A stretch of DNA of 64,000 bases. It comes from Acidobacteriota bacterium (lineage in GTDB: Bacteria; Actinomycetota; Actinomycetes; Actinomycetales; Microbacteriaceae). This document shows, in pieces, positions 42,546-49,561 of this stretch; the stretch's first letter is position 1, and every line of letters starts with the position of its first letter. The stretch is from positions 42,120-106,119 of the forward strand of contig JABBOD010000001.1 in NCBI GenBank assembly GCA_019351995.1. Direction: 5' to 3'. Both the position numbers and the translations under genes were made by a program. The notes under the pieces are model-generated. The model did no database searches. It was not told the origin of the DNA and saw only the letters and a program-made list of their open reading frames with translations.

Positions 42546-42923
42546 CTACGCGGCACCCGGCTGAGCGAGGGCGGCCGCCAGCGGCCACTCCTCGCTCAGG
42601 ATGACCTGCCGCGCTGCTCCCGTTGTGCGGTTCACCAGCACCGGGGCCATCAGATTCACGATCGGCGACCCGTCGGAGATCCGCGTGACCACCAACACAT
42701 CCACGTCGTCACTGCTCGACCCGATGGAGTCGTAACTCTCCTCGTCGAAGGCCGGCAGGTACCACGGCAGGAAAACCGGGGCGTCGAGCACGAAGAGGCG
42801 GATATCCGGCGCGTCTGCCGAACGCAGGGTGTGCAAACCGTGCGCGCCCTCCACCTCATCCAGCGTGAAATCGAGCAGCGGGGCGAGTCCGGGAGGCGAC
42901 TCCACGAAGGTCAGCGCGGTCAT
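42546..42923 (-). CDS. fliW: Flagellar assembly factor FliW
   Basis: A 125-residue cytoplasmic protein. FliW binds flagellin and CsrA in turn, so that free flagellin releases FliW and lets CsrA repress hag/fliC translation. Family features are FVESPPGLAPLLDFTLDEVEGAHGLHTL at the start, the FLPWYLP loop and the strand DVDVLVVTRISDGSPIVNLMAPVLVNRTTGAARQVIL region. Its ATG overlaps the flgL stop by 4 bases. It is the last gene of the flgN-flgK-flgL-fliW operon. No csrA gene is next to it, which is where it often occurs. Confidence 0.9.
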   Translation of the reverse strand: MTALTFVESPPGLAPLLDFTLDEVEGAHGLHTLRSADAPDIRLFVLDAPVFLPWYLPAFDEESYDSIGSSSDDVDVLVVTRISDGSPIVNLMAPVLVNRTTGAARQVILSEEWPLAAALAQPGAA

Positions 42924-43804
42924 CGGAGGAACGACATCAGGGTCGGCTGCAGCGCCTTGCTCGTGATACCGAGCGCGGCCTGATAGGCGTTCTGCTGGGC
43001 CGAGAGCTCCACGAGCGCTTTGGTCAGGTCCACCCCGTCGACGTTGGAACGCTGGGTGGTGAGGGATGTCGCCTGTGCGGTCAAAGTTGCCTGCCCCTGT
43101 TGAACCTGGTTGTAGTTCGCCGCGACCGCCGACTGCTGGGCCGACACCGCGGAGATGCGGGAGTCGATCGCGCTGAGTTGCGACGTCACGGCGGTACCGG
43201 ACTGGATGCCGCTGACGATGGTGTCGATCAGGGCGAACACCGAGTTGCTGCCGGTGCCGTAGGTCGCGGCACCGTCTCCGCTGACCGAGACCGTCGAGGT
43301 GGCGCTGATCGAGCGGCTCACCGTGGCCCCCGGGGTGCCCGTGTAGCTGTAGCTCGTCCCGTTGAACGCCGCCCCCGCGTCGGAGTTGCCCGCGAAGACC
43401 GGGCGCCCCAGGTAGCTGGTGTTCGCTTGGCTGAGCAGTTGGGCCTTCAACCCCTGCAACTGCGAGACGATCGCTCCCTTGGCCGTCGCCGACAGCGTCG
43501 CATCGCCCGTTCCCACGACAAGCGATCGCACGCTCTGCAGGGCGGTGACCGAGGAGCTGAGCGCACCGCTGACCGCGGTCAGCCAGTTGCTCGCATCCTG
43601 GGCATTGCCGGCGTACTGGGCGTTGGCGGCCTGCTCGCGCTTGAGCGCCAGCGACATCGCGATCCCGGTCGGATTGTCCGACGGCTTGCTGATGGCGTTG
43701 CCACTGGATGCCTGGTTCTGCAAGGTGGACAACTGTTGAAGTTGGGCCTGAAGGTTCGCCTGCGAGTTGGCGTAGATCATCTGATCCGTCACGCGCGTGA
43801 TCAT
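42920..43804 (-). CDS. flgL: Hook-filament junction protein FlgL
   Basis: A 294-residue flagellin-like protein that joins hook and filament. The N-terminal D0/D1 region (MITRVTDQMIYANSQANLQAQLQQLSTLQNQ at residues 1-31, with GNAISKPSDNPTG) and the C-terminal helix (VDLTKALVELSAQQNAYQAALGI) are conserved; the middle is a Ser/Thr-rich variable domain. It follows flgK by 11 bases and overlaps fliW. Confidence 0.93.
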   Translation of the reverse strand: MITRVTDQMIYANSQANLQAQLQQLSTLQNQASSGNAISKPSDNPTGIAMSLALKREQAANAQYAGNAQDASNWLTAVSGALSSSVTALQSVRSLVVGTGDATLSATAKGAIVSQLQGLKAQLLSQANTSYLGRPVFAGNSDAGAAFNGTSYSYTGTPGATVSRSISATSTVSVSGDGAATYGTGSNSVFALIDTIVSGIQSGTAVTSQLSAIDSRISAVSAQQSAVAANYNQVQQGQATLTAQATSLTTQRSNVDGVDLTKALVELSAQQNAYQAALGITSKALQPTLMSFLR

Positions 43805-43815
43805 GGGATTCGTCC

Positions 43816-45228
43816 CTATCCGGTCTTGTTGATGAGCGTGTTGAGCATGTCATTGAGGGTGGTCATCACCCGAGCGGCCGCGCTGAAGGCGTTCTGGTAC
43901 ATCAGCATGTTCGTCGTCTCCTGGTCGGTGTTGACGGAGGAGTACGACGACTGCGCGGATGCGGCGGTGGCGAGCCCCGTCGCGGTGAGCGACGCGTTGC
44001 TGCTTGCGGCGTTCGACGCGACACCGATCTGCACCACGAAGCTCTCCCACTGACTGTCGACGCCCGTCGTCGAGTTGGTGAGGGCGGCGATCGAGTTCGC
44101 GATGTCGCCGTTGGCGGCACCCGCCCCGGGCGTGGCGGCGGCGATCCCGGTCGCATCGGTCGGAATCACGCTGAGGCCGAGAGCTGCCGGCTTCGCGGGG
44201 TCGAGCGCGAAGAACGAGAGCCCCGTCGTTCCCGCGGCGTTGGAGCCGGTCTGCATGATCGAGTTCACCGAGCTCGCCACCGAGGTGGCGAGACTGTTGT
44301 ACTTCGCCGCCGCTTCGGCGATCGCGCCCCCCGTCCCCCCGGGATTCGCGGGCGCCAGCATGGCGAGGTCGGCGCCCAGCTTTCCTCCCGAGACCGCGGC
44401 GGTGGCCGCTGGGTTGTCGACGAATCCGACGGTCACGGGGGAGCTCGACGCCCCCGCGAGCGTTCCCGATCCCGTTGCCGCGATCGAGTGCACCGTCGTG
44501 CCCTCCACGAGCGGGTTCCCGCCGAGCAGCACGTCGACGCTGCCGTCCCGGTTGCCACGGACCGTGGCACCGCTCAGGTTGGCGAGAGTCTGCGCGAGCG
44601 TTCCGACGCTGTCCATCAGGCCGTTCGCGTTGCCGCCCGACGCCGTGATGGAGCGGATCTGGCCGTTCAGGGTGGCCAGCTGTTCGGCGGCCGTGTTGAT
44701 GCTCGAGATGGTGGTGTCGACGCTGGAACGCACCGCGCCCCACTGCTGGGATGCCGCGGTGTACCCGGCAGCCAACTGCCCGGCGACCTGCGTCCCCGCA
44801 GCGATGACGGTCGTGGCCGCCGAGGGGGAGGTGGAGGTGTTGGAGACGTTCTGCCACGCCGACCAGAAGTTCTGCAGCGAGGAGGAGAGGCCGTTGGCGC
44901 CCGGCTCGTTCAACGCGCTCTCGATCGAGCTCAGCTGGGTCGCGGTCTCCTGCGCATAGCCGTCGGCCGCGGAGGTGACGCGCAGCTGGGCATCGACCAG
45001 GGCGCTGTCGACGCGCGCGACACCGTCGACCGACACCCCGTCGCCCACGGCGAGGGGGTTGACGAATCCGGAGGTCGATGCCGGCGTCATCGACGAGGTC
45101 GTCACGGTCTGCCGCGAGTAGCCGACGGTGGTGGAGTTGCTGATGTTGTCGCCGACCACGGTGAGACCCTGCCGAGCCGCCACGAGGCCGGTATACGCGG
45201 TGTTGAGAGCTCCGAACGAGCTGACCAT
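43816..45228 (-). CDS. flgK: Hook-associated protein FlgK
   Basis: A 470-residue hook-associated protein 1. The N-terminus SFGALNTAYTGLVAARQGLTVVGDNISNSTTVGYSRQ is the rod/hook signature, and the C-terminus SYSSVNTDQETTNMLMYQNAFSAAARVMTTLNDML is the D0 helix. It is exported through the flagellar channel and caps the hook. It starts 2 bases after the FlgN gene stop, which fits chaperone-substrate coupling. Confidence 0.94.
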   Translation of the reverse strand: MVSSFGALNTAYTGLVAARQGLTVVGDNISNSTTVGYSRQTVTTSSMTPASTSGFVNPLAVGDGVSVDGVARVDSALVDAQLRVTSAADGYAQETATQLSSIESALNEPGANGLSSSLQNFWSAWQNVSNTSTSPSAATTVIAAGTQVAGQLAAGYTAASQQWGAVRSSVDTTISSINTAAEQLATLNGQIRSITASGGNANGLMDSVGTLAQTLANLSGATVRGNRDGSVDVLLGGNPLVEGTTVHSIAATGSGTLAGASSSPVTVGFVDNPAATAAVSGGKLGADLAMLAPANPGGTGGAIAEAAAKYNSLATSVASSVNSIMQTGSNAAGTTGLSFFALDPAKPAALGLSVIPTDATGIAAATPGAGAANGDIANSIAALTNSTTGVDSQWESFVVQIGVASNAASSNASLTATGLATAASAQSSYSSVNTDQETTNMLMYQNAFSAAARVMTTLNDMLNTLINKTG

Positions 45229-45830: not shown

Positions 45831-46255
45831 CGCTCGCCGTCGATCGGATCCGCTCAAGGCCCGGCGCGGAGAGCCGCGCACGCCAAATGAGTAAGGATCC
45901 CGCACGCGGCGCGGGCGACGAGCGCGCGAACTTAGCACAGCTCCGGCGCCCCCTGCGCCAGAGCGCGCAACCATTCCGGGGGGCTCCACTTCTGGGGTCT
46001 ACAGGGCGTGCGCGGCGGTACGCCAAGATCATGACATTCCCACCGCTTCGGCGGCGGGCCGCTTACCCAAGCACCAGCAGTAGCCGCACCCGCATGATCG
46101 CGACTCGAGCACCCGCCCGATCCGCACCGCACCATTCGTCGTGGCGCAGACCGATCGCTTACCCGCTCGATCCGCGCCTCGCACCACCACGACATCCATC
46201 CCGAATGTTGAACGCAAGTTGCTTTTGTGTCCAGATATTGTTCAGGAGTTTCGTG

Positions 46256-47074
46256 ATGGATCGCACCGCGCGCAACGCGCTTGTCGTGGAGAACCTGCCG
46301 CTCGTCGGTTACCTCGTCTCCGAGGTCTGGGGCCGGGCCACGCACCTGTCACGTGACGATCTCGCTTCCGCCGGCGCCCTGGCCCTGATCACGGCCGCCG
46401 AGGCTTTCGACCCGACCCTCGGCGTCCCCTTCGGTGCCTACGCTCGTCGCCGCGTCCTCGGCGCATTCGCCGACGAGATGCGTTCCTCCGACTGGGCGAC
46501 GCGAACGGTACGCCACCGCATCCGCGAGGTGCTCGAGGTCAAGGAGACACTGACCGCCGCCCTCGGACGCGACGCCACCATCGACGAGGTCGCGTCGGCA
46601 CTCGGCGTCGATCGCGCATCCGCCGCCGAAGCCTTGGCGGACGCCTCGCGTTCAGTGAGCTCTCTCGACGAAAGCGTCGGCGATCAGCTCGCCGCCGAGA
46701 TGTCGTCTCCCGAAGAATCTCTCGTCACCTCGGAGCGCGCCGGCATCGTTCGTGCCGCCGTTGACGCCCTCCCCGAGAAGATGCGCTACATCGTCACCGA
46801 GATCTACTTCAACGATCGGACCGTCAAAGAGCTCGCCGAGGAACTGGGCGCAACGCACTCCGCCATCTCCCAGCAGCGTTCCGAAGGAATCCGTCTGCTC
46901 CGCGACGGCCTCGAAACGCACTATGCCGACGACGAGGAGGTCAGCGCGGCTCGTCATTCTCGCATCGCGGAGTCGCGCCGCAGCGCCTACCTGTCCCGCC
47001 TGGCACAGACCGCGGGCCTCGGCCTCGCGGGCCTCGTGCGCCCGACTCCCGTCTGGGAAGCGGCCGCGTCCTAG
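46256..47074 (+). CDS. fliA: Flagellar sigma factor FliA (sigma-28 family)
   Basis: A 272-residue sigma factor. Region 2 reads ALALITAAEAFDPTLGVPFGAYARRRVLGAFADEMRSSDWATRTVR, the typical FliA form; region 3 contains DATIDEVASALGVDRASAAEAL; region 4 contains MRYIVTEIYFNDRTVKELAEELGATHSAISQQRSEGIRLLR with the helix-turn-helix for the -35 box. ATG 46256 has AGGAG 7 bases upstream; the open frame reaches far to the left without coding value. The protein should read the CTWAC-RCCGAWAG promoters found at five sites here. It is followed by fliC after 124 bases. Confidence 0.92.
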   Translation: MDRTARNALVVENLPLVGYLVSEVWGRATHLSRDDLASAGALALITAAEAFDPTLGVPFGAYARRRVLGAFADEMRSSDWATRTVRHRIREVLEVKETLTAALGRDATIDEVASALGVDRASAAEALADASRSVSSLDESVGDQLAAEMSSPEESLVTSERAGIVRAAVDALPEKMRYIVTEIYFNDRTVKELAEELGATHSAISQQRSEGIRLLRDGLETHYADDEEVSAARHSRIAESRRSAYLSRLAQTAGLGLAGLVRPTPVWEAAAS

Positions 47075-47112
47075 CCGCGTCGGGATTCCGGAAAAATAGT
47101 TTTCGCGAACTG

Positions 47113-47140
47113 CTAACGCGAATCCGGACCCGACCGAAAG
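47113..47140 (+). promoter_or_regulatory. FliA-type promoter of fliC
   Basis: CTAAC (47113-47117), 15 bases, ACCGAAAG (47133-47140). Transcription would begin near 47147, just before the first leader hairpin, giving a leader of about 52 bases. Confidence 0.7.
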
Positions 47141-47150
47141 TCTTTCATGT

Positions 47151-47168
47151 CAGCCCACGGATGGGCTG
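47151..47168 (+). promoter_or_regulatory. Putative CsrA site 1: hairpin with GGA loop in the fliC leader
   Basis: CAGCCCA and TGGGCTG form a perfect 7-bp stem around the loop CGGA. The sequence CACGGATG (47156-47163) matches the CsrA core CANGGANG, with GGA in the loop, the arrangement preferred by CsrA. Confidence 0.6.
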
Positions 47169-47184
47169 GCGTACAACGCCACAT

Positions 47185-47192
47185 CACGGAGG
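47185..47192 (+). promoter_or_regulatory. Putative CsrA site 2 over the fliC ribosome binding site
   Basis: CACGGAGG matches CANGGANG and its GGAGG is the ribosome binding site of fliC, 6 bases before the ATG. A CsrA dimer bridging this site and the hairpin site 29 bases upstream would block translation, as known for Bacillus hag. Confidence 0.55.
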
Positions 47193-47198
47193 AACAAA

Positions 47199-48038
47199 AT
47201 GGCACTCAGCATCACCAACAACATCGCAGCACTCAACGCATACCAGAACCTGACCAACGCACAGGACAAGCTCACCTCGTCCATCGCGAAGCTCTCGAGC
47301 GGTAACGCGATCACGTCGGCGGGCGACAACGCAGCCGGCCTGGCCATCTCGACCGGCCTGACCTCGCAGGTGAACGGCTTGAACGTCGCCGCCACCAACG
47401 CGCAGTCCGGCCTCGATGTGGTTCAGACCGCGAGCGGTGCTCTCACCCAGGTGACGAGCATGCTGCAGCGTCTGCGCGACCTGGCGGTCCAGGCGGCCAA
47501 CGACTCGAACAGCACGTCCTCTCGCGCTGACATCGGAACGGAAGCCACCCAGATCACGTCGGAACTCACGCGAATCAGCACGGCAACGACCTTCAACGGC
47601 ATCCACCTGCTCGATGGCACCGGCGGAACCGCTGGCGTGCTGAACTTCCAGGTCGGTGCCAACGGCACGGCGGACAACACCATCGCAGTCGACTTGTCCA
47701 CCGCGAACGTCGGCGCTGTCGTGACCGGTCTCGGAACGCTCGACTTCTCCACGAACACCGGAGCAACCGCGGCGATCTCGACCATCGACACCCAGCTGGG
47801 CACCGTCTCCACCGCGCAGGCAAACCTGGGTGCGACCGAGAACCGATTCACGAGCGCCATCGCGTCGGTGAACGTGGCATCGCAGAACCTGAACTCCGCC
47901 AGCTCGCAGATCACGTCGACCGACATGGCCAAGCAGATGGTGATCTTCACGGGTCAGCAGGTTCAGTCGCAGGCCGCGACGGCGATCCTCGCTCAGGCGA
48001 ACCAGCTGCCGCAGGGCATCCTGAAGCTCCTCGGCTAA
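47199..48038 (+). CDS. fliC: Flagellin
   Basis: A 279-residue flagellin consisting of D0/D1 domains with only a short middle. N-terminal block ITNNIAALNAYQNLTNAQDKLTSSIAKLSSG, DNAAGLAISTGLTSQVNGL, and the C-terminal block SQITSTDMAKQMVIFTGQQVQSQAATAILAQANQLPQGILKLLG-type end (split across residues 235-279) are all present. It polymerises into the filament. The gene has its own FliA-type promoter, a leader with two putative CsrA sites, and a strong hairpin after the stop. Confidence 0.96.
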   Translation: MALSITNNIAALNAYQNLTNAQDKLTSSIAKLSSGNAITSAGDNAAGLAISTGLTSQVNGLNVAATNAQSGLDVVQTASGALTQVTSMLQRLRDLAVQAANDSNSTSSRADIGTEATQITSELTRISTATTFNGIHLLDGTGGTAGVLNFQVGANGTADNTIAVDLSTANVGAVVTGLGTLDFSTNTGATAAISTIDTQLGTVSTAQANLGATENRFTSAIASVNVASQNLNSASSQITSTDMAKQMVIFTGQQVQSQAATAILAQANQLPQGILKLLG

Positions 48039-48136: not shown

Positions 48137-49561
48137 GTGACCACCACAAATGTGACAACGTCGACAAACACCGCCGGCGCATCCGTGCTTTCGGGGCTTG
48201 TCAGCGGGTTGAACACCTCCGCGCTTGTCGCCGCACAGATCGCGGCCGAGTCGGCTCCCAAGGACGCCCTGCAGCAGCAGGTCGCCACCGACACCACGCT
48301 TCGCACGGCACTCCAGTCACTGAACGCCGGTTACGCCAACCTCGCGACCCTGGCAACGGCCGATGCCGCGAGCAACGCATGGAATGTCTTCACCACTGCC
48401 AGCTCGGACCCGAGCGTCAGCGCCACCACCACCACGAACGCGAGCGCCGGAACCGTCTCCTTTTCGGTCGATTCGGTGGCGGCCGCCCAAGTGGATGTCA
48501 CCGCCCCGATGTCGGATTCGAGCACCGTCCCCGTTTTCACGATCGTCGGGAGCACCGGCACCCAGGTCCAGGTCCAGCCGGCGTCCGGCTCCGTCGCCGA
48601 CATCGCCACCGCCATCAACCAATCTTCCGCGGGAGTCTCCGCGATCGCCGTCGCATCGGGGACCGATGCGACAACGGGTGCGGCACTCTACCGGCTTCAA
48701 CTCACGTCCTCCCACACCGGCGCCTCGGGTGCGTTCGGTTTCTATGGAGGGTCTCCGAGCAGCGTCACCGCCGGTACAGCGCCGAACCTGCTCACGCAGC
48801 CCGGGGCGGCCACCATCCAGACCGCATCGGATGCCGCCGTCACCCTCTGGGCAGGAACCTCGGCCGCGCAGACAGTCAGCTCGACGAGCAACACCTTCGC
48901 CGACCTTCTTCCCGGAGTGACCGTGACGGTCTCGAAGGCATCCGCAACACCCGTCACGCTCACCATCGCGCAGGACAACGCGACCATCACGAACGCGGCG
49001 GCCACTCTGGTCTCGTCGGTCAACTCACTGCTGCAGTCGATCGCCTCGAGCAGCGCGGTCACGTCAAGTACCGACGCATCAGGGAACGTCACCACGTCCG
49101 GCGGCCCCTTCACCGGAGACAGCCTGATCCGAAACGCGTCATACGCACTTTTCAACACGATCGCGCAGCCGGCGAGCGGCGCGTCACCGGCGAGCATCGG
49201 CATCATCACGCACCAGGACGGCTCGATCACCCTCGACGCGACCAAATTCCAAGCGGCGCTTGCCGCGGATCCCAGCGGAACCCACGCCATGATGCAGAGC
49301 ATCTCCACCGCCGTCGCCGCGCAGGCGACGGCGCAGTCCGATCCGGTGGTCGGTGCGCTGACCAGCAGAGTCTCGAGCCTCGCCAGCGACATCGGCGGCC
49401 TGAACAGCCAAGTGAGCGCCTGGACCGTCGAACTGGCGAGTCGCCAGGCCACACTTGAGTCAACCTTCGCGGCGATGGAGAGCCAGCTGTCTGCGCTCAA
49501 AACCCAGTCCACCTGGCTCAGCCAGCAGTTCCCGACCACCATCTCGAGCACGGGACACTGA
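48137..49561 (+). CDS. fliD: Filament cap protein FliD
   Basis: A 474-residue cap protein (hook-associated protein 2). The N-terminus has VLSGLVSGLNTSALVAAQI; the C-terminus has long helices with SRVSSLASDIGGLNSQVSAWTVELASRQATLESTFAAME-like coiled coil and ends LSTQFPT-like (LSQQFPTTIS). The middle is a Thr/Ser/Ala-rich beta domain. It starts with GTG after GAAGGAG. It overlaps fliS by one base (TGATG). Confidence 0.93.
   Translation: MTTTNVTTSTNTAGASVLSGLVSGLNTSALVAAQIAAESAPKDALQQQVATDTTLRTALQSLNAGYANLATLATADAASNAWNVFTTASSDPSVSATTTTNASAGTVSFSVDSVAAAQVDVTAPMSDSSTVPVFTIVGSTGTQVQVQPASGSVADIATAINQSSAGVSAIAVASGTDATTGAALYRLQLTSSHTGASGAFGFYGGSPSSVTAGTAPNLLTQPGAATIQTASDAAVTLWAGTSAAQTVSSTSNTFADLLPGVTVTVSKASATPVTLTIAQDNATITNAAATLVSSVNSLLQSIASSSAVTSSTDASGNVTTSGGPFTGDSLIRNASYALFNTIAQPASGASPASIGIITHQDGSITLDATKFQAALAADPSGTHAMMQSISTAVAAQATAQSDPVVGALTSRVSSLASDIGGLNSQVSAWTVELASRQATLESTFAAMESQLSALKTQSTWLSQQFPTTISSTGH

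What the first reader, a model, noticed from the sequence alone, without database searches (positions are those of the whole stretch)
47151..47192. Flagellin leader has two CsrA-type sites, one in a hairpin loop, one on the ribosome binding site
CACGGATG in the loop of a perfect 7-bp hairpin and CACGGAGG over the ribosome binding site both match the CsrA core CANGGANG. They are 29 bases apart in a leader that would be about 52 bases long. This repeats the layout of Bacillus subtilis hag, where CsrA blocks translation and FliW relieves it. FliW is encoded at 42546-42923 in the same cluster. CsrA control of flagellin in actinobacteria is little described, so this is a concrete prediction.
Basis: partly seen in the sequence, partly recalled or inferred. 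Interest (0 to 1): 0.78.

Follow-up and report, generated by a model that had tools for sequence, protein, structure and literature searches.

The report
Two-site CsrA switch on flagellin mRNA
The start of this actinobacterium's flagellin message carries two binding sites for the regulator CsrA, one in a hairpin loop and one over the ribosome binding site; the arrangement is conserved across flagellated actinobacteria, so they very probably tune flagellin production with the switch already proven in Bacillus and Campylobacter.

Summary
CACGGATG (47156-47163) sits in the loop of a perfect hairpin and CACGGAGG (47185-47192) covers the Shine-Dalgarno (SD) of fliC (ATG 47199), 29 nt apart.

csrA is in the genome, 6.7 kb beyond the window. 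Of 64 flagellin leaders from 53 genomes of the same order, 63 keep both CANGGA sites. The stem covaries strongly around an invariant loop. A covariance model finds only this site in the genome, and across the class it marks flagellin starts almost exclusively. csrA, fliW and flagellin co-occur (51 genomes with all three; csrA-flagellin Fisher p 2e-51), and CsrA keeps N55, a FliW-related residue in B. subtilis.

It also covaries. FlgM was not found in 50 flagellated genomes.

Best explanation: CsrA represses flagellin translation; FliW, titrated by cytoplasmic flagellin, relieves it. This is a known kind of system; one actinobacterial leader site was predicted in 2008 (Kineococcus). No binding or expression was measured. 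Interest is moderate.

The parts
47113..47139 (+). sigma28-type (FliA) promoter of fliC: CTAAC - 15 nt - ACCGAAA
   Evidence: CTAAC...GCCGATA recurs at the matching position in most leaders of the order; read from sequence, not mapped experimentally
47147..47172 (+). hairpin 1, tetraloop CGGA closed by A-U and C-G; high-affinity CsrA site candidate CACGGATG 47156-47163
   Evidence: fold; covariation; conservation
47178..47181 (+). 5' arm (GCCA) of a weak second stem that pairs with 47200-47203 (TGGC, includes UG of the start codon)
   Evidence: MFE; covariation with start-codon context in relatives
47185..47192 (+). second CsrA site CACGGAGG overlapping the Shine-Dalgarno sequence, in the 18-nt loop of stem 2
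   Evidence: conservation
47199..48038 (+). fliC, flagellin (279 aa)
   Evidence: PF00669 127 bits, PF00700 68 bits
42546..42923 (-). fliW, flagellar assembly factor / CsrA antagonist; starts next to the end of flgL
   Evidence: PF02623 E 1.2e-15; best PDB match FliW of the CsrA-FliW complex 5dmb, weak (E 0.009)
42920..43804 (-). flgL, hook-associated protein 3
   Evidence: PF00669/PF00700 and position after flgK
43816..45228 (-). flgK, hook-associated protein 1
   Evidence: PF22638
45231..45713 (-). flgN, chaperone
   Evidence: PF05130; exact start not determined
46241..47074 (+). fliA, sigma-28 family factor, just upstream of fliC
   Evidence: Sigma70 regions 2, 3 and 4; exact start not determined
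48137..49561 (+). fliD, filament cap
   Evidence: PF07195/PF02465
49561..49980 (+). fliS, flagellin chaperone
   Evidence: PF02561

Best explanation
The fliC leader is a two-site CsrA operator of the hag/flaA type. A CsrA dimer grips the CACGGA loop of hairpin 1 with one RNA pocket and reaches across 29 nt to the CACGGAGG site on the SD with the other, blocking 30S binding, so flagellin is not translated. Free FliW binds CsrA and takes it off; cytoplasmic flagellin sequesters FliW. Flagellin therefore represses its own translation until export removes it. The weak second stem that pairs the start codon holds the SD site in a loop and probably strengthens repression. Shown here: the sites, both stems, their conservation and covariation, and the presence of csrA, fliW and conserved CsrA RNA-contact and FliW-related residues. 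Inferred: binding, direction (repression), FliW relief and flagellin feedback.
For: 63 of 64 flagellin leaders from 53 genomes of the order have CANGGANG in a hairpin loop and CANGGA on the SD, spacing 23-41 nt, mode 29-30. Stem 1 covaries: 93 double-changed cells against 31.7 +- 5.3 shuffled, covariation score 0.408 against 0.122, 0/500 shuffles; sliding the partner destroys it. About a fifth to a quarter of the leaders have a degenerate SD (GGAAG) but keep CANGGA. Model R1 hits the own genome once (E 7e-12, next 0.25). csrA with flagellin: 51 both, 6 csrA only, 5 flagellin only, 333 neither, p 2e-51; FliW is in all 51 and in none of the flagellin-less, csrA-less genomes tested. CsrA L4, R6, R44 and N55 are 20/20 conserved, while E. 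coli has K55. B. subtilis hag and C. jejuni flaA show the same layout with proven repression (PMC7652899, PMC6529632, PMC4894983). E. coli CsrA bridges sites 10-63 nt apart.
Against: No binding or expression data exist for this organism. Stem 1 is longer and more stable than most SELEX-selected hairpins (mostly four or fewer pairs, PMC7652899), so affinity could differ. In one family (f45) the SD site relaxes to CCAGGA; some paralogous flagellins lack the hairpin site. Five flagellin-positive genomes of the class sample had no csrA match; at least two are incomplete assemblies.
Confidence: 0.87

Rival explanations
1. The hairpin is a 5'-end stabiliser of a highly expressed mRNA and the SD motif is only a strong ribosome binding site; CsrA is not involved.
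For: The hairpin lies within a few nt of the predicted 5' end, and highly expressed mRNAs often carry 5' hairpins (general knowledge).
Against: A stabiliser would not keep the loop sequence ANGGA invariant while the stem covaries, nor keep CA-N-GGA when the SD decays to GGAAG, nor track csrA presence.
Confidence: 0.05
2. The leader is controlled mainly by RNA structure: stem 2 hides the start codon and CsrA, by binding the loop, opens or protects the message (activation, as for ymdA or flhDC).
For: Stem 2 pairs the start codon and covaries; CsrA activation by unfolding is known (PMC7652899).
Against: The CsrA site lies on the SD itself, which predicts steric exclusion. Stem 2 is weak in the window (4 bp, -3.3 kcal/mol, no better than shuffles).
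Confidence: 0.05
3. Another RNA-binding protein of flagellated actinobacteria, such as FliW itself, is the main reader of the leader.
For: FliW alone binds the B. subtilis hag leader weakly (500-fold weaker than it binds CsrA; PMC6529632).
Against: The motif matches the core of the CsrA SELEX consensus and csrA co-occurs with it.
Confidence: 0.03

Closest known systems
Bacillus subtilis hag leader (BS1/BS2) with the Hag-FliW-CsrA partner switch
   Same: Two CsrA sites, the downstream one on the SD; fliW encoded beside flgL; CsrA has a C-terminal extension and N55
   Different: Shorter leader (about 53 nt); csrA is not next to fliW here (6.7 kb past the window end); FlgM not found; a start-codon stem
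Campylobacter jejuni flaA 5' UTR (SL1/SL2)
   Same: Short leader (45 nt) with two stem-loops, ANGGA in both loops, the second over the RBS, supported by compensatory changes
   Different: Here the 3' arm of stem 2 is the start codon region, and the element is conserved across a whole class rather than a genus (stem sequences were not compared)
Kineococcus radiotolerans fliC leader (Bagwell et al. 2008, prediction)
   Same: Actinobacterial flagellin gene with a BS2-like CsrA site on the SD; csrA in the flagellar island
   Different: Only the SD site was noted, by similarity to hag (9 of 12 bases); no hairpin site, conservation or FliW analysis
E. coli glgC leader
   Different: Not flagellar; CsrA there is controlled by CsrB/C sRNAs, not FliW

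Membership tests
CsrA-FliW-flagellin translational switch (hag/flaA type) | csrA gene in the genome | tested here: met
   G000:C28:112821-112976, 73.7 bits
CsrA-FliW-flagellin translational switch (hag/flaA type) | fliW gene in the genome | tested here: met
   window 42546-42923, PF02623; one copy genome-wide
CsrA-FliW-flagellin translational switch (hag/flaA type) | at least two ANGGA sites in the flagellin leader, one on the SD | tested here: met
CsrA-FliW-flagellin translational switch (hag/flaA type) | upstream site in a hairpin loop, conserved with compensatory changes | tested here: met
CsrA-FliW-flagellin translational switch (hag/flaA type) | CsrA RNA-contact residues (L4, R44) and FliW-related N55 | tested here: met
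   20 of 20 actinobacterial CsrA; the role of N55 is from B. subtilis (N55D in PMC6529632) and own knowledge
CsrA-FliW-flagellin translational switch (hag/flaA type) | CsrA binds the leader and represses translation | not testable with these tools
   needs gel shift, footprint and reporter
CsrA-FliW-flagellin translational switch (hag/flaA type) | FliW binds CsrA and flagellin and relieves repression | not testable with these tools
   needs pull-down and a fliW deletion
Known Rfam RNA family | match to any of 4227 covariance models | tested here: not met
   no match up to E 5 in 46900-47400

The most novel reading that the evidence does not exclude
Flagellated actinobacteria lack FlgM and use the CsrA-FliW-flagellin loop as their only secretion-coupled checkpoint on filament synthesis; their flagellin leader is a distinct, class-wide RNA element in which the SD CsrA site is held in a loop closed by the start codon, so that CsrA binding and start-codon sequestration act together.
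Probability: 0.35. Interest if true: 0.68.

Novelty: new member of a known kind. Interest (0 to 1): 0.52.

Why it matters
It turns a single-leader guess into a testable rule for a whole bacterial class: where an actinobacterium has flagellin it has, with few exceptions, csrA, fliW and this leader, and where it lacks flagellin it nearly always lacks csrA. That supports the view that flagellin control is the ancestral job of CsrA. The absence of recognisable FlgM makes CsrA-FliW a candidate for the main assembly checkpoint in these bacteria. The leader model could also serve as an Rfam family and as a ready-made, flagellin-responsive translational switch.

Tried and rejected
Rfam scan of the leader: nothing. 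RNAalifold on A1 recovered only stem 1; stem 2 needed a dedicated permutation test. A first, loose stem-2 test was noisy and was replaced by one that forces the stem to start in the start codon and permutes within families. Weak R1 hits in the own genome (E >= 0.25) were treated as chance; no second CsrA target is claimed. Weak R1 hits in other classes of the phylum are a mixture: about eight precede flagellin genes, the rest look like chance. One primary hag paper (Mukherjee 2011) was looked up and is not held, so hag details come from reviews and later papers. No structure prediction was run, since single-chain models would not test CsrA-FliW or CsrA-RNA binding.

Full report
What is there. 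Folding gives an 11-pair hairpin with GGA in the tetraloop and a second, weak 4-bp stem between GCCA 47178-47181 and UGGC 47200-47203. The motif alone is not rare (21 in the window + strand, 20.75 expected), but the combination occurs once and never in 40 shuffled windows.

A csrA gene exists at C28:112821-112976, 6.7 kb past the window end. Flagellin leaders were collected from all genomes with a full flagellin match among 149 relatives: 64 leaders, 53 genomes. All 64 have GGA in the loop of a hairpin and GGA on the SD; 63 have strict CANGGANG and CANGGA at the two places. Loop columns C-A-N-G-G-A and SD columns C-A-N-G-G-A are invariant or nearly so while the stem changes freely. Stem 1 shows 93 double-compensated cells against 31.7 +- 5.3 in shuffles, covariation score 0.408 against 0.122, 0/500, and collapses when the register is slid. 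Roughly a fifth to a quarter of the leaders carry GGAAG instead of GGAGG yet keep CANGGA, which argues that the site is kept for CsrA and not only for the ribosome.

How specific is the element. A covariance model hits the own genome once (E 6.9e-12; next 0.25). Over 395 genomes of the class, 46 of 50 hits with E <= 1e-4 are directly upstream of a flagellin match; of the other four, one is cut by a contig end, two precede mini-flagellins and one a degenerate flagellin. In other classes of the phylum, flagellin leaders with different stems but ARGGA or ACGGA loops and CARGGAGGA or CACGGAGGA SDs are seen (e.g. TGTAGCA-AGGA-TGCTACA). In the wider class the SD site loosens in one family (CCAGGA) while the loop site stays. 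Rfam holds nothing like it.

The protein partners. In the class sample csrA and flagellin coincide in 51 genomes, with 6 csrA-only, 5 flagellin-only and 333 neither (Fisher p 2e-51). FliW is found in all 51 and in 45 of 45 further flagellated genomes of the order; it is absent from the flagellin-less, csrA-less genomes tested. Genomes of one family are related, so the p-value overstates independent evidence, but loss and retention recur across many families. CsrA has L4, R6, A36, P37, R44 and N55 in 20 of 20 actinobacterial sequences; E. coli has K55 (the two reference sequences were written from memory). FliW rings in B. subtilis and T. maritima but not in E. coli (control). CsrA of the window genome is 79-80 aa, with a C-terminal extension like the FliW-binding CsrA of 5dmb.

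Bases just upstream of the SD site pair with the start codon and codon 2: GCCA/UGGC in the window, ACCCA/UGGGU in most relatives, GACUCA/UGAGUC where the gene starts AUGAGUC, GCCC/GGGC and UCCCAU/AUGGGA elsewhere. Re-dealing start contexts among leaders within one family lowers the pairing: 7 of 2000 permutations reach the observed value in family f45, 21 of 2000 in f1, 4 of 2000 in the rest. The loop is usually 17-25 nt and holds the SD site. This is a real but weak structure; its energy in the window alone is not remarkable. Its likely role, supporting repression, is inference.

Mechanism. By homology with B. subtilis hag (PMC7652899, PMC6529632) and C. jejuni flaA (PMC4894983), the most likely mechanism is CsrA-dimer bridging from the hairpin loop to the SD, excluding the ribosome; the 29-nt spacing is inside the 10-63 nt range that E. 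coli CsrA can bridge (PMC7652899). FliW would relieve repression and flagellin would titrate FliW. FlgM, the other classical flagellar checkpoint, was not found in 50 genomes including this one, as Bagwell et al. noted for Kineococcus and relatives (PMC2587704); a divergent FlgM cannot be excluded.

Novelty. The prediction that CsrA controls an actinobacterial flagellin was made for K. radiotolerans in 2008 from the SD site alone, and Actinobacteria were listed as possible FliW users in 2015 (PMC4682653). Paper searches found no experimental test in this phylum (open-licence papers only). What is added here is the hairpin site, class-wide conservation with covariation, co-inheritance of all three partners, the start-codon stem and the missing FlgM. 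I file it as a new member of a known kind.

Noticed in passing
L078:1639-1980 (-), and G471 C30 near 288660 (L075): A mini-flagellin gene (113-118 aa, only the N- and C-terminal helical parts) lies between fliA and fliC with its own copy of the two-site CsrA leader.
   Followed up: partly
whole genomes G000 and 49 relatives: No FlgM (PF04316) in 50 actinobacterial genomes with flagellar genes although E. coli, B. subtilis and T. maritima controls ring.
   Followed up: partly
G248, G439, G485, G499 (family f54); G380, G488 (family f35): csrA present without flagellin or FliW; the f54 CsrA matches are weaker. CsrA may have another job there.
   Followed up: no
L160 (Cryobacterium sp. Y29): An intact promoter and two-site leader are followed not by fliC but by unrelated or degenerate sequence and then fliD: apparently a deleted flagellin gene whose leader remains.
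   Followed up: partly
G120 C585 and G135 C2: Two fliW genes in tandem.
   Followed up: no
window 42920-42923: flgL and fliW overlap by a few bases, suggesting translational coupling of fliW to flgL; csrA is not in this operon, unlike in B. subtilis.
   Followed up: no
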